Assembly: GCF_026230175.1 (NCBI RefSeq)
Contig: NZ_CP104208.1
Location: 1,302,001-1,366,000 of the forward strand
Source of the DNA: Desulfovibrio mangrovi
GTDB taxonomy: Bacteria; Desulfobacterota; Desulfovibrionia; Desulfovibrionales; Desulfovibrionaceae
Length of the DNA: 64,000 bases
Direction of reading: 5' to 3'
The position numbers and the translations under genes were made by a program. This document shows positions 6,697 to 16,958 of this stretch, in pieces; the stretch's first letter is position 1; each line of letters starts with the position of its first letter. The notes beneath the pieces were generated by a model. The model was given only the letters and a program-made list of their open reading frames with translations, was not told where the DNA came from and did no database searches.

Positions 6697-7989
6697 ATGG
6701 ACATTCAGATTTCACGCACCGAACTTGTCAGAACACTCGCTGCCACGCAGGATCTTGTCTGCCCTGTCGTTGCCGGACACGGCAAACGCGTCGCCGTTTT
6801 CTCATCGCTCATCGCCGAGGCACTGGGCTATTCGCAAGCCGAACGGGAACGGCTCATTCTCGCTGCCGAGCTGCACGACATCGGCTGTTTCACCCTGTCG
6901 ATAAAGGAAAAACAGGACCTGCATGCCTTCGATGTCCTCGCTCCGGAAAAGCACTGCGCGGTCGGATACATCCTTCTCAGCCAAAGTGCCATGTTCAATG
7001 ACATATCCCGGACGGTGCTGCACCATCACGCCCGATGGGATGCTACCAAGGGATTCGACATTGAGGGCAACCCCATTCCCCTGGATGCCTACATCATCCA
7101 CCTCGCCGACAGAATCGACATAAGCATTACGGACAAGCATCAAATTCTATCCATCAAAGACAAGATCAGCGAAAACATCATCAGCCAGTCGGGAACGCTC
7201 TTTTCACCCCGCGTCGTCCGTGCCTTTGAAGACGCATCCGCACGGGACGCCTTCTGGCTGCTCGGCGTGCATTACGAGCACAGCAACCACACCATTCGGG
7301 AAACAGGCGAATTGCTCTCGAACAAAGAACTCATTGAGCTTGCGGACATTCTCACGCTTGCCATCGACTACAAGTCGCGATTTACCTCCACCCACTCATC
7401 AGGCGTAGCCGCCTCGGCTGTAAAACTCGGAACATTGGCCGGTCTGGAGGACACCCTGCCTCTGCGGCTTGCCGCCCAGTTGCATGATCTGGGCAAACTG
7501 GTTGTACCCAACGAGATTCTGGAAAAGAACGGCCCCCTTTCCGATGAAGAACGGGCAATCATAGAAACGCACCCCTTCTACACATACAGCATGCTGAACC
7601 AAGCCAAGGGGCTGAAAGAGATTGCCCGCACCGCTTCGCTGCATCAGGAAAAACTGAACGGAACCGGTTATCCTTTTAAACCAGTACCTGAAGAATATGA
7701 TATCCCTGCGCGCATTCTCGCCATAAGCGACATCTTCACGGCACTCACGGAAGACCGCCCCTACCGTAGCGGGCTTTGCGAAGGCGAGGTGCTTGCAATC
7801 ATGCGCAAGATGGCCGAAGAGCTGCATCTGGATCCTGAAATCTTCACTCTGGTGGAGAAGAACTTCCAGCAGCTGAACGCAGTTCGCAAGGCCGCCCAGA
7901 TTGAAGCCACTAATCGATATGAAGAATTCTGGCAGGAGACCTCAGCCGTGATGGCATACATTCGCCCTGCATATCGACAGAACGCATGA
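6697..7989 (+). CDS. Tandem HD / HD-GYP domain protein (putative c-di-GMP phosphodiesterase)
   Basis: The 430-residue soluble protein has two HD domains. The first (about residues 10-180) has ELHDIGCF (HD at 60-61) and an HHHARWD triad region. The second (about 230-390) has QLHDLGKLVVPNEIL (HD at 263-264), HQEKLNGTGYPF and RILAISDIFTALTEDRPYR, the hallmarks of HD-GYP enzymes that hydrolyse cyclic di-GMP. The canonical HHE..DGTGYP is here HQE..NGTGYP. The ATG at 6697 is preferred over upstream starts because GGAGGAG lies just before it. No receiver or membrane segment is seen, so the N-terminal HD domain is probably the sensory or regulatory half. It stands alone after the tadA terminator. Confidence 0.85.
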   Translation: MDIQISRTELVRTLAATQDLVCPVVAGHGKRVAVFSSLIAEALGYSQAERERLILAAELHDIGCFTLSIKEKQDLHAFDVLAPEKHCAVGYILLSQSAMFNDISRTVLHHHARWDATKGFDIEGNPIPLDAYIIHLADRIDISITDKHQILSIKDKISENIISQSGTLFSPRVVRAFEDASARDAFWLLGVHYEHSNHTIRETGELLSNKELIELADILTLAIDYKSRFTSTHSSGVAASAVKLGTLAGLEDTLPLRLAAQLHDLGKLVVPNEILEKNGPLSDEERAIIETHPFYTYSMLNQAKGLKEIARTASLHQEKLNGTGYPFKPVPEEYDIPARILAISDIFTALTEDRPYRSGLCEGEVLAIMRKMAEELHLDPEIFTLVEKNFQQLNAVRKAAQIEATNRYEEFWQETSAVMAYIRPAYRQNA

Positions 7990-8024
7990 TAAACCGGACC
8001 GATCAACAGCGCTCATACAATTGA

Positions 8025-8056
8025 AAGGCGGGACACCCAAGTGCCCCGCCTTATCA
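8025..8056 (+). terminator. Terminator between convergent genes
   Basis: GGCGGG and CCCGCC pair across a 12-nt loop, followed by TTATCATT on the plus strand. The T tract is imperfect. It separates the HD-GYP gene from the convergent rhodanese gene and has a short A-rich flank for the other direction. Confidence 0.6.
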
Positions 8057-8112
8057 TTACCTCATCAAAAGCCAACGTCTCCTGTCCCGCTTGGCTCCTC
8101 GAACCCCGATCC

Positions 8113-8688
8113 CTATTGTTTTCTGCCCTCAGGCTCCGTCTTTACCGGGCACCCGCCGCCGCACAGGGGCACCCTGTTCCACGGCAACATGACCAGAACG
8201 CGCATCATGCCGCACACGCCGGTGAGTCCGGCAAAGACCATCCCGCCGCCCACAAACAACGGCAGGGCAAAGAAATACGGCGATGCCAGCAGGCCAAGCA
8301 AGGTAAAGAGCAGCACCATGGTTCCGGCAACCACAAGCACCTGCCGCTCAAGCGGAATGGCTTTGCGCCCCAACACCACAGGCAGACCTTCCTGCTTCCA
8401 AGCCACCATGCCGCCATCGAGCACGGCCACTTCCCCCACTTCACGCGCAAGCGCCGCAGCCGCATCTGCCGCCCGAATACCTGACCGGCACACCATGACA
8501 GGCAGCTTGCCCGCCCCGCCAAGCCCTTCCACGCGCTCGCGGCTCACTATGTCAAAGGGAAGGTACACGGAATCCGGCAGCCGTTCGGCAACCGCCTCGC
8601 CTGTAGTCCTCACATCAACCAGCACGGCCTTGCCCTGCTGAACCATATCGTACGCAGCCTTGGGGGATATTTTTGTTACAGTAGCCAT
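8113..8688 (-). CDS. Rhodanese-like domain protein with C-terminal membrane (DUF2892-type) region
   Basis: Residues about 1-110 are a rhodanese domain: VLVDVRTTGE, then the active-site loop CRSGIRA with the persulfide-carrying Cys, and VLDGGMVAWKQEGLPV. Residues about 115-170 contain two hydrophobic segments separated by GLLASPYFF, matching the inner-membrane YgaP/DUF2892 arrangement. The tail carries CGGGCP. The protein likely handles sulfane sulfur at the inner membrane, which would fit a sulfur-metabolising host. The start follows AGGAGATATCAT. A small hairpin (CTTCGC/GCGAAG) lies in the leader at about 8705-8720. Confidence 0.9.
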   Translation of the reverse strand: MATVTKISPKAAYDMVQQGKAVLVDVRTTGEAVAERLPDSVYLPFDIVSRERVEGLGGAGKLPVMVCRSGIRAADAAAALAREVGEVAVLDGGMVAWKQEGLPVVLGRKAIPLERQVLVVAGTMVLLFTLLGLLASPYFFALPLFVGGGMVFAGLTGVCGMMRVLVMLPWNRVPLCGGGCPVKTEPEGRKQ

Positions 8689-9094
8689 ATGATATCTCCT
8701 GCATCTTCGCCTGCGCGAAGCACGGGTTGCATATTGAAGAATGATAGAATTGCACCACCTTCAACATACCCCACCCGGGTCTTTTTTCAATATGTTTTGC
8801 ATAGTGCAGATACGCCCACATAAGACCTTGCTGAAAGGCCTATATTGCAACAGAGGGAACGACATACGAAGATGAGAAAGAGACAAGCACCACCGCTCAC
8901 AAACAGCAGGCCCCCATCGGGCATGGACAATGAACACTCCTTTCCGCCCCTCTACACACGCCCCGGACCAACGCTGTGTCGTAAGAGCTGTCGTCTCACC
9001 ACACTTTTCCGCTTGCGTGTGGACGTAAAATATCTTAGAAACCAAGTCCCTTTTGGTGACAGCGCATTCATTACGCCAAACCGAAGGACCATAC
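8689..9094. other. Intergenic region upstream of the rhodanese gene and tRNA-Ser
   Basis: About 400 bp without a supportable gene. Two overlapping open frames on opposite strands lack ribosome sites and family-like sequence. The left end holds the rhodanese ribosome site and leader hairpin. The right end should hold the tRNA promoter, but I could not identify convincing -35/-10 boxes. Confidence 0.6.
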
Positions 9095-9190
9095 GGAGAG
9101 GTAGCGAAGTCCGGCCGTAACGCGCTCGACTCGAAATCGAGTTAGGGGTTAATAGCCTCTACGTGGGTTCGAATCCCACCCTCTCCGCCA
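9095..9190 (+). tRNA. tRNA-Ser(CGA), reading UCG
   Basis: The acceptor arm GGAGAGG pairs with CCTCTCC, followed by discriminator G and an encoded CCA. The anticodon stem CTCGA/TCGAG encloses the loop CTCGAAA, giving anticodon CGA. A long variable arm follows, as expected for class II tRNA-Ser. The T arm GTGGG-TTCGAAT-CCCAC is intact. Confidence 0.97.
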
Positions 9191-9204
9191 TTCAGAAATA
9201 ATTT

Positions 9205-9241
9205 GAGCTACTTAGCACACAGCCAAGTAGCTCTTTTTTTA
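9205..9241 (+). terminator. Terminator after tRNA-Ser
   Basis: GAGCTACTT and AAGTAGCTC form a perfect 9-bp stem followed by a run of T. Confidence 0.92.
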
Positions 9242-9249
9242 TGCCCTGC

Positions 9250-9291
9250 GGTTCGGTTTTATGGTTCGTGGTTCGATTTGTGGTTCGATTT
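9250..9291 (+). repeat. Short GGTTCG tandem-repeat patch downstream of tRNA-Ser
   Basis: Four copies of GGTTCG occur in 42 bp. The last two are part of a perfect tandem duplication of the 12-mer GTGGTTCGATTT (9268-9279 and 9280-9291). The position just after a tRNA gene is where integrase binding sites often lie. That use is inference, since no integrase gene is present. Confidence 0.75.
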
Positions 9292-9533
9292 AGTAAAAAC
9301 TGCAAAGTTGTGCCAACCGAAGCAAACCAGGCCACAGCTGACAACATCCTGATTTGACATTCATTTCTTCAGCTTCTTCTCTTCCCCCCCCAGAAACACC
9401 TCCCTACCCACCCCTGGGCGTGGCACGCAGATTCTCGGGCGGCAGATCATCCAGATAGGCGACACACATTATAGCCCAGCATTAGAGATTAGGCTAACGT
9501 GCTCCCATCACGAAGCAAACAGGAGAACCATCA
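9292..9533. other. Non-coding stretch before the GIY-YIG gene
   Basis: Nothing codes here. With the repeat patch it makes a gap of over 300 bp between the tRNA and the next gene. The GIY-YIG ribosome site (AGGAGAACCATCA) lies at its right end. Confidence 0.5.
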
Positions 9534-9983
9534 ATGTCCCAACTCCACCAACTTACCCAATTCGGATTCCGCCATGCTGGCTACTGGAGCATTGAAAGCC
9601 ACACCCAAAAGATCAAATTCAACATATTATCTACTGACGACCTCAAGCTTACAAATGTAATATACGCTTTCACCTGCAGCAACGAGGTGCAGTACATTGG
9701 GAAAACCGTCAGAGACCTAAAAAGCCGCCTAAGCGGATACCGTAACCCCAAAGAGGGCAAAGGCGGCACAACCACAAACTACGGCATCAACCAAGAGATC
9801 AAGAAATCCCCGTCACAGTGGGATATTCATCTTCTCCACGTCACGAGCGAACAGCTTGGATACGGCATAATCGACAACAACACCCTGACGATCGAGCGAT
9901 TTGGCAACATTCAAATCAACCTTGCCGAGGGGCTAGAACGCTCTCTTATCAGGGCCTTCACGCCTCGCCATAACAAATTATAA
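9534..9983 (+). CDS. GIY-YIG nuclease-domain protein, isolated
   Basis: The 149-residue protein has the GIY-YIG elements NVIYAFTC and VQYIGKTVRDLKSRL (about residues 41-66), where the GIY and YIG triads are VIY and YIG, plus a late Glu in EGLERSLIRAF that fits the metal-binding residue. GIY-YIG domains cut DNA in homing enzymes, repair proteins and some restriction enzymes. The gene stands alone between the tRNA terminator and its own strong terminator, and looks AT-richer than its neighbours by eye. It may be cargo of a small mobile insertion. The target and activity are unknown. Confidence 0.8.
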   Translation: MSQLHQLTQFGFRHAGYWSIESHTQKIKFNILSTDDLKLTNVIYAFTCSNEVQYIGKTVRDLKSRLSGYRNPKEGKGGTTTNYGINQEIKKSPSQWDIHLLHVTSEQLGYGIIDNNTLTIERFGNIQINLAEGLERSLIRAFTPRHNKL

Positions 9984-12115: not shown

Positions 12116-12187
12116 CGAGCAGCCCAGCAATCCGTACTCGCGCCAATGCGATCAGCTATACGGCGTTCCCCTGAAAGACAGACACCC

Positions 12188-14056
12188 ATGACACGAAAGC
12201 CCATACTCGCTCCCCTGCCCTCCTCCGAGCCTCTCAGAGACGCCATAGAGATCGACGATCTCAACTTTACGTATGCCGGAGTCTCTGCGCCCTCGCTGAG
12301 CGGGATTACACTGCGCATACGTGCCGGTGAATTCGTCGGGCTTGCCGGGCGCAACAACGCGGGAAAATCCACCCTCTGCCACGCGCTTGCCGGAGTCATC
12401 CCCCATCTGGTCAGGGGTTCCATGCAGGGAGCAGTGCGCATTTGCGGAATCGATACAACCAGCATGAATATGCCCGATCTGTCCGCCCGCATCGCCTTCG
12501 TGATGCAAAAACCCGATCAACAACTCTCCGGCATGCGGTTCACCGTACGGGAGGAAGTCGCTTTCGGCTTGGAGAATCAGGGAATTGAACGCTCCGAAAT
12601 GCTGCAGCGAATCAACGCCGCCCTTTGCATGACAGGACTTGAAGCGCTGGCTGACCATTCGCCCCACCATCTATCCGGCGGCCAACTGCAACGGCTGATG
12701 CTTGCGGCGGCCATAGCGGGAGACAGCCCCATTCTGGTGCTCGACGAACCCACAACATTTCTTGACCCCGCCGGAGAACTGGCCATGCTGGACCTGCTGC
12801 GCCAGCTTTGCGACACAGGACGCATTGTCATACTGACAAACCAGCGCCCCTGCAGCTTAGCCGCCCACGCCGACAGAATCCTCGTCCTGCACGAAGGAAA
12901 ACTGGAGCTGGATGGCACGCCGCGCGAGGTTCTCACCTCTCAGCGTCTCCTCTCCACTGGATTGGGGGTTCCACGATATACCCAAATATCCCGGCTGGCC
13001 CAACAACACGGAATATGGGGAGTCCCCGCAGCCGCAGACGCCACAGAGCCTGCTCCGGCCATCACGCTTGAACAGACGCTGGCCGGACTGAAGCACCTCC
13101 GCCAAACGGCTGCCCAGCCGCCTACTCTGGTGCCTGATCTGATGCTTGCGGAAGAAAGCTTTCCTCCCCGCCCTGCTGGCGACACAAGGGGCATTTTCAT
13201 GGAAAAGGTATGCTTCAGCTACGAAACCGGACCGGAAGTGCTTACGGACATCACCCTCAGCATAGGCAACACGCCGCAAGGAGCCGCTGGGGAAGCATGG
13301 GCTTTACTGGGACACAACGGCTCCGGCAAAAGCACACTTGTCCGGCACTTCAACGGCCTGCTCAAGCCCTTGCGCGGCACGGTCCATGTGAATGGCACCC
13401 CCACCTCACAACGCAGAGTGGCGCAGGTTGCGCAACACGTTGCCCTGCTGTTCCAGAATCCGGATGACCAGATATGTAAGAGCACCGTGCAGGACGAGGT
13501 GGCTTTAGGACCACGCAACCTTGGCTATCAGAAAGAGCAGGTACAGCGGCTGGTAGAAACATCGCTCCATGCAATGGGACTTACCGGCATGGAGCGCTAT
13601 AATCCCTACGATCTGGGGCTGAGCGAGCGCAAACGCTTGGCCATAGCCTCCGTACTGGCGATGGATACGGACATTGTGGTGCTGGATGAACCGACTGCCG
13701 GTCTTGATGCAAGCGAAATAGCCCTGCTTGAAGCCGCCATACGCCATTTGACCGCATCCGGAAAAAGCGTCGTCGCAATCAGCCACGACATGGATTTTGT
13801 AGCGGAGAACTTCAGCCTCGCCATCTGCCTGGAGGCTGGACAAATTCGGTACCAGGGACCGGTAGCCAACTTGTTCACGACTCCTTCACTCTTGCAGCAA
13901 TGCGGCCTGATGGCTCCGCAGGTGATACAGGCAGCCAACGGTTGCGGCGTAACGCTGGAAACCATCACACCGGAGGCGTTGGTTGAACGCCTGACAACCG
14001 GAAGCGCCCTAAGGGATCTGCCACCAGAACAGCCGACGCAGACATTCCCTGAATAA
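12188..14056 (+). CDS. Fused double ATPase of an ECF transporter (EcfA1-EcfA2 type)
   Basis: One polypeptide of about 622 residues contains two ABC ATPase domains. Domain 1 has Walker A GRNNAGKST (54-62), signature LSGGQLQRL (about 163) and Walker B ILVLDEPTTFLD. Domain 2 has Walker A GHNGSGKST (375-383), a Q-loop FQNPDDQI typical of ECF ATPases and Walker B IVVLDEPTAGLD. Its signature is LSERKRLAIAS, so SGGQ is degenerate in the second half. The fusion replaces the usual EcfA/EcfA' heterodimer. The start is uncertain: ATG 12188 is used, but ATG 12146 is in frame and neither has a clear ribosome site. The gene closes the ECF operon. Confidence 0.9.
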   Translation: MTRKPILAPLPSSEPLRDAIEIDDLNFTYAGVSAPSLSGITLRIRAGEFVGLAGRNNAGKSTLCHALAGVIPHLVRGSMQGAVRICGIDTTSMNMPDLSARIAFVMQKPDQQLSGMRFTVREEVAFGLENQGIERSEMLQRINAALCMTGLEALADHSPHHLSGGQLQRLMLAAAIAGDSPILVLDEPTTFLDPAGELAMLDLLRQLCDTGRIVILTNQRPCSLAAHADRILVLHEGKLELDGTPREVLTSQRLLSTGLGVPRYTQISRLAQQHGIWGVPAAADATEPAPAITLEQTLAGLKHLRQTAAQPPTLVPDLMLAEESFPPRPAGDTRGIFMEKVCFSYETGPEVLTDITLSIGNTPQGAAGEAWALLGHNGSGKSTLVRHFNGLLKPLRGTVHVNGTPTSQRRVAQVAQHVALLFQNPDDQICKSTVQDEVALGPRNLGYQKEQVQRLVETSLHAMGLTGMERYNPYDLGLSERKRLAIASVLAMDTDIVVLDEPTAGLDASEIALLEAAIRHLTASGKSVVAISHDMDFVAENFSLAICLEAGQIRYQGPVANLFTTPSLLQQCGLMAPQVIQAANGCGVTLETITPEALVERLTTGSALRDLPPEQPTQTFPE

Positions 14057-14058
14057 GA

Positions 14059-14092
14059 AACCCCGCCTGTTGGCGGGGTAGACTTTCTTTCC
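14059..14092 (+). terminator. Terminator after the ECF operon
   Basis: ACCCCGCC and GGCGGGGT pair around TGTT, followed by AGACTTTCTTT. It also separates the convergent DAC-fold gene. Confidence 0.82.
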
Positions 14093-14105: not shown

Positions 14106-15359
14106 CTATCCGACCTTATAAATACACCTGCCTTCACGGTAGATGGAAACGGGCCCGTCTTCCGACACCTTTACGGCAACACCATACTTCGAGGCCGCTG
14201 CGGCCGCAGTGGAGCGCCCCCCGCCGCCGACTTCGTCCGTAGGAGCCTTGGAGGTGTCGACAATGGCGTTGATATCCAGCACCTGACTGAAATCGCTGGA
14301 AAAGACGACCATGCCGTCCGTGGTGAGAATGCGTAACAGTTCACCGGAATCGGCAACGACCCGGATGCCGCACATCTTCACGCTCCGCCGGATCGCCTCA
14401 AACACCCCACTCCCGCTGTCGATATGCTTCTTGACGAACCCTTCGTTCTCGATCTGGTCAAATCTGTCCGTAAACAGCACTACAGATCCTTTGCGAATCT
14501 TGGAAAGCGAGTAAAAACACTTCCACGGCTCAACATCATACGCACTGCCGCACACTGCCTTGTCGATGACGGAGCAATCGAAGATCCTCCACTTGCCACG
14601 CCTGTAAACAATCCTCGACTTATTACTCTTGAATATCTCAACATCGGAAAATGCATTGATGCCAATGTAAAACAGGGCATCCCTCTCCCCTTCCAGAATG
14701 GACAGAACCCGCTGGCCTGTAATCTTGTCAAAGGAGTTCATGATACTTGCATCAATATTATAGTACCCTTTCACAACGCCGTTCACGTCACACGCATAGC
14801 AGGAATCGTAACCGTCAACATACCTGTAGAAGGCTGCGTCGCGCATAACTGCATCGTTCAGCACAATCCCCTTGCTTTCCAAACCGGAAAAACTGATGAA
14901 CTCGGCACCATAGCGGGAATAATCGAAATCCCCTCTGCCATCGAACACCAGCAAGCCCGTCTTAACCGAACTGCCCTCATATTTCTCGAAACTCAGGCTT
15001 TTGATGTTCTGGATTATCTTGAACACTCCGTGCCAGTGAATGCCGCCCACAAACTTGGCAATGGCAATATCAATAACGGACATGGTTGCCATGGCGCTGC
15101 TGTAAGCCGCATCAACTTCACAATGAAAGTCATCGCTGAACACACTGTCGAAAACGTCTACCACGTGATCCAGAAAACGCATTTCCAACTCAGAAAAACC
15201 AACCCCTCTGAAGAACTGCACCTCCTTATCACCACGCAAGATCGCATAAGAGGGCTCCCCCTCACTTTCCTGCCACACGTCAGCCACACTGCACTCGCAT
15301 CCCAGGGCAATCTCAACATCATTCAATACAGAGCGGAATGTATCTGAACCCAAAAGCAT
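14106..15359 (-). CDS. Divergent diadenylate-cyclase-fold (DisA_N/DAC) protein with large N-terminal region
   Basis: The 417-residue protein has a C-terminal part (about 280-417) that follows the DAC domain pattern: CFYSLSKIRKGSVVLF, then LLRILTTDGMVVFS where DGM (348-350) occupies the catalytic DGA position, then GGGGRSTAAAAAS (378-390) at the place of the GTRHRAA motif, and VAVKVSEDGPVSIYREG matching the VSEETGxIS strand. DAC enzymes make c-di-AMP from two ATP. Replacement of RHR by RST makes catalysis uncertain; it may bind nucleotides or use a variant chemistry. Residues 1-270 are a separate mixed alpha/beta region with no motif I recognise, plausibly sensory. The start has GAGGTGAAGA upstream. 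It is monocistronic, convergent with the ECF operon. Confidence 0.65.
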   Translation of the reverse strand: MLLGSDTFRSVLNDVEIALGCECSVADVWQESEGEPSYAILRGDKEVQFFRGVGFSELEMRFLDHVVDVFDSVFSDDFHCEVDAAYSSAMATMSVIDIAIAKFVGGIHWHGVFKIIQNIKSLSFEKYEGSSVKTGLLVFDGRGDFDYSRYGAEFISFSGLESKGIVLNDAVMRDAAFYRYVDGYDSCYACDVNGVVKGYYNIDASIMNSFDKITGQRVLSILEGERDALFYIGINAFSDVEIFKSNKSRIVYRRGKWRIFDCSVIDKAVCGSAYDVEPWKCFYSLSKIRKGSVVLFTDRFDQIENEGFVKKHIDSGSGVFEAIRRSVKMCGIRVVADSGELLRILTTDGMVVFSSDFSQVLDINAIVDTSKAPTDEVGGGGRSTAAAAASKYGVAVKVSEDGPVSIYREGRCIYKVG

Positions 15360-15591: not shown

Positions 15592-15626
15592 AACAAAAAC
15601 TCCCCGACACCGCAGCATCGGGGAGC
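15592..15626 (-). terminator. Terminator of the mucR-like gene
   Basis: On the minus strand CTCCCCGA and TCGGGGAG form a perfect 8-bp stem followed by TTTTTG. Confidence 0.9.
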
Positions 15627-15658: not shown

Positions 15659-16105
15659 TTAGGCCTTCTTTTCAGCCTTCTTGCCGCCCTTTTTACCGCG
15701 GCTTTCCACCTTTTCCCAAATCTTCATGGAAGCCATCTTTTCCTTACGCTGCTTGGCAAGGCTCTTACATACAAGAGCGGTGCCCTTCTTGTAGCCGTGC
15801 TTTTCACGATATTCGTTAGGAGTAAGACCATGGGTTGCAAGATGCTTCTTGCCGAGAATCTTGAAAGACTTACCGCATTCAACACAGATAATGGCGTTCT
15901 GCTTGATTGCTTTCTTGGGATCAACAACAGGACCTTCAGCTACTTCTTCTGCACACTCTTCAACTTCTTCGCATGCAGCAAGCTTGGCCAGGCCTTCGGC
16001 CAGTTCCTTTACCATGGAGATCATCTCGGCAGGGGTCATCTGCTTAACGCCGGCCTGAGCCTGAACCATGGACATGGCCTGATCAAAGAAAGGGCTAGAA
16101 TTCAT
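15659..16105 (-). CDS. MucR/Ros-family zinc-finger transcriptional regulator
   Basis: The 148-residue protein has the Ros/MucR core: CVECGKSFKILGKKHLATHG, in which C74, C77, H88 and H92 form the single zinc site, followed by LTPNEYREKHG. The tail is rich in Lys and ends KKGGKKAEKKA, suiting DNA binding. The N-terminal half is helical and acidic and may oligomerise, as in MucR. MucR proteins are H-NS-like or specific regulators of surface and virulence genes in alphaproteobacteria and are common in Desulfovibrio. The ATG at 16105 is chosen over GTG 16114 because GAGGTG sits 6 bases before it. It is monocistronic with a long AT-rich upstream region, which fits autoregulation. Confidence 0.92.
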   Translation of the reverse strand: MNSSPFFDQAMSMVQAQAGVKQMTPAEMISMVKELAEGLAKLAACEEVEECAEEVAEGPVVDPKKAIKQNAIICVECGKSFKILGKKHLATHGLTPNEYREKHGYKKGTALVCKSLAKQRKEKMASMKIWEKVESRGKKGGKKAEKKA

Positions 16106-16958
16106 ATGTGGCACCTCATTTTGGGGTTAATTGCTGCGCACATTTAAACACATTATTCTTAAATGTACATAACTTTTTTTTGTAAAAACACCAATAAATA
16201 TTCACTTACATGATACTTATAAAGCATCTTGCAAGTAAACACTCCCATCATAAACCGTAGTTATGTGAATTATCCTGCACATCAGCCCCCCTTGCATAAA
16301 TCGATATTACCTACAGAAATACAAGAAGTTACACCATGAAAACATAAAGAATTTGCCAACCTCTTCGAACGACTTAAAGACAGTAACCGATGCCTCTTCC
16401 CCATGAATGATACAACCCAGCCCCACACCACTTAGCGACAAACCAAACCGCCATCAATTCAAAGTGATACAACACCTATCCAACACCCGAAAAAGCGGCC
16501 ATCAACCTGCATGACATCCATAGGTACAGCCATGAAATCCACACCTAAAAAGGCAGCAAAATGGCTATAGAATAACTAAAGCACACACACGCCCCAGCCC
16601 TCGAAAAATGGGAGCTTGCGGCGTTTTTCTTCGCTTTCCCCTTTGCCTTTCACAAGGCGGCGTGCTAGAGCATTTTTCAGCGACGGGCAAGCCAAACCGC
16701 CATGGAGCATGGCGCTACGGCCAAGGCAAAACAGCCCTCCTGCCGCGCTACAGTTCGTTCTTTTATCCGGGAGTCGGACATTGTCAGGACTCCCTGTTTT
16801 ATTTGCCTGAGCGGTTGCTCTGCCACGCAACCACTGTCAAGGTATGTACGAGACGAGCAGAATTGCATATGATCGCTTTGCCCTCATAAGGTGGGCAGGT
16901 ATGCACGCTTAACGTATGTACCTTTAGAAAACGACTTGCCAATTCGAGAGGAAATCAC
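16106..16958. other. 850-bp non-coding region between mucR-like gene and a small orphan
   Basis: The part from 16106 to about 16570 is AT-rich and probably contains mucR control sites. The part from about 16575 to 16800 is visibly GC-richer. It contains overlapping open frames on both strands (16576-16830 minus, 16608-16889 plus) that lack ribosome sites and recognisable sequence. It ends in a terminator-like hairpin. A small RNA gene is possible but not demonstrated. Confidence 0.5.
16769..16803 (+). terminator. Possible terminator in the non-coding region
   Basis: GGGAGTC and GACTCCC pair around a 12-nt loop, followed by TGTTTTATTT. No gene ends just upstream, so this could be the end of an untranslated RNA. 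Confidence 0.5.

What the first reader, a model, noticed from the sequence alone, without database searches (positions are those of the whole stretch)
14106..15359. Divergent DAC-fold protein with DGM and RST in place of DGA and RHR
The C-terminal third follows the diadenylate cyclase pattern strand by strand, but the RHR triad that contacts ATP reads RST, and DGA reads DGM. The 270-residue N-terminal region has no motif I know. It could be a nucleotide sensor, a cyclase with different products, or a dead enzyme serving as a receptor.
Basis: partly seen in the sequence, partly recalled or inferred. Interest (0 to 1): 0.72.

Follow-up and report, generated by a model that had tools for sequence, protein, structure and literature searches.

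The report
Divergent diadenylate-cyclase-fold sensor protein family
A bacterial protein of an unnamed family keeps the fold and most of the ATP pocket of the enzymes that make the signal molecule c-di-AMP, but has lost one key histidine and gained an invariant lysine, so it is probably a working but altered signalling enzyme or sensor.

Summary
ORF 14106-15359(-) encodes 417 aa whose C-terminal ~140 residues adopt the DAC (DisA_N) fold: AlphaFold2 pLDDT 86.3, Foldseek ranks 1-47 in the PDB all DACs. DGM and RST are real. Pfam, NCBIfam and PADLOC miss the protein, but it belongs to a traceable family: 28 chosen members aligned, profile-profile match to 11 canonical DACs E 4.8e-10, apart from other DACs at 100/97 in a tree. 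RST does not look like decay: Asp348, Gly380, Ser399 and Asp401 are 28/28 and Arg382 27/28; the canonical His is 0/28; a Lys two residues before the pocket Ser is 28/28, where 11 canonical DACs have V or T. dN/dS is low. At least 4 of 28 loci read sit beside restriction or defence genes, two inside hsdM-X-hsdM type I operons; three follow a SpoIIE-type gene; many, the window copy included, stand alone. Most likely: a sensor-gated DAC-superfamily nucleotidyl cyclase with altered phosphate contacts; a dead receptor is a serious rival. Activity and product are untested. New variant of a known kind.

The parts
14106..15359 (-). 417-aa protein of the divergent DAC family
   Evidence: ORF; model pLDDT 86.3, pTM 0.86; relatives
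14106..14528 (-). DAC-fold region, residues ~278-417: DG348-349, GGGGRST 378-384, K397, S399-E-D-G402
14529..15359 (-). N-terminal region, residues 1-277: no Pfam/NCBIfam domain; Y127-E128 and W257 in 28/28 aligned members; putative sensor
   Evidence: sensor role inferred
14060..14079 (.). terminator-like hairpin, found on both strands, between this gene and the convergent ABC transporter gene
   Evidence: consensus scan only; 5 such sites found in the region, 3.0 expected
15599..15626 (-). terminator-like hairpin between the upstream MucR-type gene and this gene, so perhaps a single-gene transcript
   Evidence: consensus scan only
15659..16114 (-). upstream neighbour: ROS/MUCR-type regulator (Pfam PF05443, E 4e-37); no shown link

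Best explanation
A soluble two-part signalling protein. The N-terminal ~275 residues (conserved YEG turn and RRGxW-type strand) act as input; the C-terminal DAC domain binds an adenine-type nucleotide with metal and, when the input allows head-to-head pairing, joins two of them into a cyclic dinucleotide (c-di-AMP or a close analogue). Shown: fold, homology, kept pocket residues, purifying selection, family spread. Inferred: that Lys397 reaches the pocket (it lies two residues before the phosphate-contacting Ser on the same strand, hence the same face) and replaces the charge lost with the His of RHR; catalysis; product; the sensor role of the N-terminus.
For: DAC fold; homology E 4.8e-10 and Pfam DAC above cut-off in one member. 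Contacts listed for CdaA (PMC7288161, section read in full): the ribose Asp, the Gly, the Arg, the Ser and the acidic metal ligand map to D348 (28/28), G380 (28/28), R382 (27/28), S399 (28/28) and D401 (28/28). K397 is 28/28, against V (3) or T (8) at that place in 11 canonical DACs and V, T or A in 14 DACND-DACs. dN 0.17 with dS near saturation (~2) against the 74% ortholog. A DAC lineage that also lacks the His (R-Y/F-N in 14 of 14 aligned) persists in 17 of 247 sampled genomes of the phylum, the own genome included. In the DS-2 system mutation of two predicted catalytic DAC residues abolishes phage defence (PMC13092281, passages); L002, of the His-less lineage, hits the DS2_3 model at E 2.4e-20 but far below its cut-off (72 of 630 bits).
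Against: His is 0/28. RHR to AAA abolishes activity and ATP binding in M. tuberculosis DacA (PMC3328451, passages) and activity in CdaS (PMC4568413, passages); those mutants also lost the first Arg, which is kept here. The D401-to-Glu124 match needs a one-residue gap. One member, L053, has KSK instead of R-x-x. The own genome already has a canonical CdaA-like DAC. Foldseek TM-scores are modest (0.26-0.56 by target length for most rows, rmsd 3.3-8.7). No activity data.
Confidence: 0.5

Rival explanations
1. Catalytically dead DAC fold kept as a receptor: it binds ATP or c-di-AMP made by the cell's CdaA and signals through the N-terminal region.
For: His 0/28; a canonical CdaA-like gene in the own genome; in three loci (G060, G065, G093) it follows a SpoIIE/HATPase-type gene, in G093 with a STAS gene before that, where a sensor subunit would fit (Pfam run on G065 and G093 only).
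Against: The ribose-binding Asp and the acidic D401 are 28/28; a receptor need not keep them.
Confidence: 0.3
2. A different reaction in the DAC fold (other cyclic or linear nucleotide, nucleotidyl transfer to a partner protein).
For: Family-specific invariant Lys and loss of the His suggest changed phosphate chemistry; varied operon partners.
Against: No direct evidence; most of the pocket is kept.
Confidence: 0.15
3. The family's role is phage defence: a cyclase or sensor module attached to restriction and other defence genes.
For: hsdM-X-hsdM in G127 and hsdM-X-hsdM-hsdS-hsdR in G083; Vsr, C5 methylase and MzaE/AIPR beside it in G196, with an integrase 4.6 kb away; the own-genome paralog beside a KAP NTPase that hits PADLOC PDC-S20 at E 3.5e-75. 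DAC-CBASS links are known (PMC13092281, passages).
Against: I can name defence genes next to only 4 of 28 loci; nine DGM-type loci from other families of the phylum lie among what look like housekeeping genes, with no neighbour common to the nine; the window copy has none that I recognise.
Confidence: 0.3
4. Degenerate relic on its way to loss.
For: No profile match for the protein itself; only 2 of 10 genomes of the genus have it; one relative elsewhere (G828) shows 7 in-frame TGA.
Against: Low dN/dS, and RST-type motifs (R, then S/T/E, then T/S) throughout a 15-member clade with 100/98 support.
Confidence: 0.03

Closest known systems
DAC / DisA_N domain (PF02457): CdaA, DisA, CdaS
   Same: Fold; DG, Gly, Arg and Ser of the pocket; order of strands and motifs; a GALI-like Gly291 (28/28; matched to a DAC chain only weakly)
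   Different: His of GxRHRxA absent, SEE to S-x-D, added invariant Lys397; the query is below Pfam detection
DACND-DACNH-DAC proteins (PF21749, PF21750), including the own-genome L002
   Same: C-terminal DAC that also lacks the His (R-Y/F-N) and has S-x-D; hhalign over the DAC E 1.9e-4, prob 47.7; similar order of predicted strands and helices in the N-terminus (inference)
   Different: N-termini not related by sequence at significance (E 0.2-0.6); no invariant Lys; separate clade
DS-2 anti-phage system DAC (NCBIfam NF053872; phospholipase-cGAS-DAC)
   Same: DAC protein tied to defence; weak hits of 5 of 17 family members, best E 0.014; those shown lie in the DAC part
   Different: None near the 630-bit cut-off (best 13.8 bits); no CBASS genes recognised by eye beside the window gene

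Membership tests
DAC domain (PF02457) | DAC fold | tested here: met
   AlphaFold2 model; Foldseek ranks 1-47 all DACs, TM by target length modest
DAC domain (PF02457) | Sequence-profile match over the curated cut-off | tested here: not met
   Query: none. 4 of 17 members match at E <= 1; of the nine family members scanned with scores shown, one (L036) is over the cut-off. Family profile vs canonical DACs E 4.8e-10
DAC domain (PF02457) | DGA motif | tested here: not met
   DG 28/28, but the third residue is M in the query (M 12, A 12, L 3, C 1 of 28)
DAC domain (PF02457) | GxRHRxA motif | tested here: not met
   Gly380 28/28, Arg382 27/28, His 0/28, Ala385 28/28
DAC domain (PF02457) | (V/I)SEE with metal-binding Glu | tested here: inconclusive
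   Ser 28/28; S-x-D-G with Asp 28/28; register uncertain by one residue
DAC domain (PF02457) | c-di-AMP synthesis, head-to-head dimer | not testable with these tools
   needs biochemistry or a complex model
DACND-DACNH-DAC | DACND and DACNH sensor domains | tested here: not met
   No Pfam hit; hhalign of N-termini E 0.2-0.6
DS-2 DAC (NF053872) | 630-bit model cut-off; phospholipase and cGAS neighbours | tested here: not met
   No hit for the query; best family score shown 13.8 bits; the window neighbours are an ABC transporter gene (name recalled) and a MucR-type regulator

The most novel reading that the evidence does not exclude
A separate DAC-superfamily lineage in which an invariant strand lysine replaces the RHR histidine, giving a nucleotide second messenger enzyme with changed chemistry or product, used as a sensor module that restriction systems and partner-switch operons have recruited independently.
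Probability: 0.25. Interest if true: 0.8.

Novelty: new variant of a known kind. Interest (0 to 1): 0.55.

Why it matters
Annotation by motif or Pfam mostly overlooks this family, although about half of the sampled genomes of one order carry a member (61 of 117). It would show that the RHR motif, used as the mark of diadenylate cyclases, is not the limit of the superfamily, and it gives named residues (D348, R382, K397) and named operons (hsdM-X-hsdM) with which to ask whether DAC-type signalling is wired into type I restriction.

Tried and rejected
Degenerate relic: rejected on conservation, dN/dS and tree. Homology of the N-terminus to DACND/DACNH: the helix and strand order looks alike, but hhalign with and without predicted secondary structure is not significant, so it is not claimed. 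Conserved partner gene: none shared by all loci; the nine loci share no neighbour as a group, though some pairs do. Mobile-element copies: the window protein alone finds no match in the plasmid or phage records (E 0.01) or, by short patterns that reach close relatives only, in viral contigs. Synteny with G006: the transporter that lies next to the gene in the window is on another contig there. PADLOC scan of flanks: 123 of 128 ORFs of 150 aa or more within 2.5 kb of 28 loci; five long ones were dropped for the size limit (three rpoB-like, one RND-transporter-like, one large oxidoreductase-like; names recalled). The overlap filter kept an antisense ORF instead of the second hsdM of G083, so real genes can be missing. 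Only 25 of 109 matching families are printed and not by locus, so 4 of 28 is a lower bound; two mad3 and two DrmC hits stay unassigned. The same scan on control loci was not run, so enrichment is not shown.

Limits. The 28 aligned members are a chosen set: near-copies from G061, G065, G105 and G172 and most members were not aligned. The 28 loci read are 27 of these (not L018, whose contig piece was short) plus G065. The DACND set is 14 of 17 loci (L083, L086, L091 left out); the canonical set is L001 and ten of the twelve loci L054-L065 (L055, L058 put in the tree apart). Of 46 genomes with only a weak C-terminal match I read those 12: eleven have the RH pair (L055 as RHQ), L058 has not. The tree used the motif columns too, has several long branches that the program flags, and is rooted at the midpoint. 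Family counts come from different profiles: 18 of 347 order genomes with the 4-row profile, 64 of 395 phylum genomes with the 17-row profile, of which 18 have long matches at E 1.5e-31 or better. Galperin's 2023 review of DAC architectures is not held; its content is recalled only, so I cannot exclude that it mentions this family. Papers holding both 'diadenylate cyclase' and 'type I restriction': 0 in the held library. Names of neighbours without a Pfam or PADLOC call are recalled from the sequence.

Full report
What is there. The ORF at 14106-15359 on the minus strand codes for 417 aa. It seems to stand alone: a convergent ABC ATPase gene (12146-14056; name recalled) lies downstream with a terminator-like hairpin between (14060-14079), and a ROS/MUCR-type regulator (15659-16114, PF05443 E 4e-37) lies upstream with a terminator-like hairpin between (15599-15626) (consensus scans, 5 sites found where 3.0 are expected). 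GC of the gene is 51% against 55.5% for the window.

Is it a DAC? The protein has no match in Pfam, NCBIfam or PADLOC at E <= 1. Against PDB sequences six chains come up at E 10 or less: two DisA chains (0.28, 0.35) and four S-adenosylmethionine decarboxylases (0.34-1.1), so the single sequence proves nothing. Relatives settle it. In the genus 2 of 10 genomes have it (own genome and G006, 74% identity), and the own genome holds a second copy at 49%. A 4-row profile finds 18 of 347 genomes of the order; a 17-row profile finds 64 of 395 of the phylum, 18 with long matches (E 1.5e-31 or better) and 46 with weak matches mostly over the last ~70 positions. I read 12 of those 46: eleven have the RH pair of canonical DACs, one has not. 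One Bacteroidota member, from Hymenobacter (L036), passes the Pfam DAC cut-off, 28.1 against 27 bits. The C-terminal profile of 28 members against 11 canonical DACs gives probability 96.6 and E 4.8e-10. Sequence profiles against the PDB are weaker: the full-length 17-row profile finds no DAC, the C-terminal one finds two DAC-domain chains at E 0.027-0.031, DisA at 0.096 and two more DAC chains above 1. The AlphaFold2 model is confident (mean pLDDT 86.3, pTM 0.86), and Foldseek returns DAC structures at ranks 1-47, then prob 0.10 or less in the three further rows printed (152 matches at E 10 or less in all; TM by target length 0.26-0.56, rmsd 3.3-8.7). Rank 47, 2fb5, is titled a hypothetical protein; a paper names it a CdaS homolog (PMC8573169, passages).

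Anatomy of the pocket. A review gives the ATP contacts of Listeria CdaA (PMC7288161, section 2.3 read in full): Leu of GALI and Leu88 for adenine, Asp of DGA for ribose, Gly, Thr, Arg and His of GxRHRxA, Ser and Glu123 for phosphates, Glu124 for the metal. In 28 aligned members the Asp (D348), its Gly (G349), the motif Gly (G380), the Ser (S399), an Asp two residues further (D401) and a GALI-like Gly (G291) are 28/28; the Arg (R382) is 27/28. The His is 0/28 (S, T, Q, R, K or E instead). The Thr place is Gly in 26/28, but it varies in canonical DACs too (T in 2 of 11), as does the third residue of RHR (R 5, A 3, H 1, L 1, V 1). R-H itself is 11/11 there. A Lys at K397 is 28/28; the same place, counted from the Ser, is V (3) or T (8) in the 11 canonical DACs and V, T or A in 14 DACND-DACs. 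K397 and S399 are two apart on one strand, so their side chains should face the same way; that K397 makes up for the lost His is my inference. DGM or DGL marks a clade of 15 (100/98 support), the rest have DGA (12) or DGC (1).

Selection. Against the 74% ortholog dN is 0.17 with dS about 2, near saturation; for two members of another family dN and dS are 0.0255 and 0.247. The protein is under purifying selection.

N-terminus. Residues 1-277 have no known domain. Y127-E128 and W257 are 28/28. The own genome also has a DACND-DACNH-DAC protein (L002) whose predicted order of helices and strands is similar (the L002 model has pLDDT 81.2, pTM 0.65), but profile comparison of the N-termini is not significant, so common descent there is not claimed.

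Surroundings of relatives (28 loci read: 27 of the aligned members plus G065). In G127 and G083 the gene sits between two hsdM genes, overlapping the first by 13 nt; in G083 hsdS and hsdR follow. In G196 it is next to vsr, a C5 methylase and an AIPR/MzaE gene, with a phage-type integrase 4.6 kb away. The own-genome paralog (36% GC) lies beside a KAP NTPase matching PADLOC PDC-S20 (E 3.5e-75) and a gene matching PDC-M09B (E 7e-14). In G043 an hsdR lies 3.75 kb away. In G060, G065 and G093 it follows a gene for a SpoIIE phosphatase with a HATPase_c_2 domain (in G065 overlapping by 4 nt if the longest ORF start is right); in G093 a STAS gene precedes that gene (Pfam run on G065 and G093 only). 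In G690 AAA and VWA_CoxE genes are near. In a second order 61 of 117 genomes (21 of 28 genera) match the DGM-type profile (motifs of these hits not checked one by one). Nine DGM-type loci that I read, seven from families f31, f52 and f109 of that order and two from f105 (order not determined), lie among what look like housekeeping genes with no partner common to all. So defence linkage is real for some members and not the rule. The ten neighbours were picked because they looked like defence genes; 123 of 128 flanking ORFs were then scanned without choice, with output not split by locus and no control set.

How it most likely works. Steps shown: DAC fold, homology, kept pocket, selection. Steps inferred: the N-terminus senses a cue; the DAC domains pair head to head as known DACs do; an adenine nucleotide is bound, with Arg382, Ser399 and Lys397 on the phosphates and Asp401 on the metal; a cyclic dinucleotide is made. 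Against this stand the absence of the His and mutants of RHR to AAA that abolish activity in other DACs (PMC3328451 passages; PMC4568413 passages), although those mutants also removed the first Arg. In favour: another DAC lineage without the His persists (17 of 247 genomes), and a DAC is needed in the DS-2 defence system (PMC13092281 passages). A dead receptor remains a serious rival.

Novelty. No model in Pfam, NCBIfam or PADLOC covers the window protein. The held papers holding 'diadenylate cyclase' with 'type I restriction' number 0; the main review of DAC architectures was not readable. I file it as a new variant of a known kind: a DAC-superfamily family that fails the DGA and RHR motif tests but keeps the fold and most of the pocket.

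Noticed in passing
L067:4663-6165 (-) and 7633-9834 (-), G000:C1 ~1.53 Mb: The second own-genome copy (49% identical, 36% GC) lies between a KAP NTPase (PADLOC PDC-S20) and a 733-aa protein with a PDC-M09B hit; some nearby genes look phage-like (recalled, not searched).
   Followed up: partly
L073:5873-10143 and L075:2202-10644: Type I restriction operons with two different hsdM genes flanking the DAC-like gene, in two genera; why two hsdM is unexplained.
   Followed up: partly
L079:3879-7567; L108:4181-8281: SpoIIE/HATPase gene followed by the DAC-like gene, upstream of an rpoB-like gene (name recalled); a STAS gene precedes it in L108. A possible link of DAC-type signalling to partner switching.
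   Followed up: partly
L107:5592-9719: DAC-like gene with Lys-Ser-Lys in place of Arg-x-x, near AAA and VWA_CoxE genes.
   Followed up: no
L055:1492-3063 and L058:46-1800: Two further odd DAC-type proteins (RHQ with SMDGPIS; THGGSRKE with SQNGAIE) on long branches of the tree near the DACND-DACs, placing unsure.
   Followed up: no
G828:C6:142882-144159: Family copy read with 7 in-frame TGA codons: perhaps a pseudogene or a recoded genome bin.
   Followed up: no
window 9095-9983: tRNA-Ser followed by a low-GC stretch with a GIY-YIG-like ORF (name recalled), possible small island.
   Followed up: no
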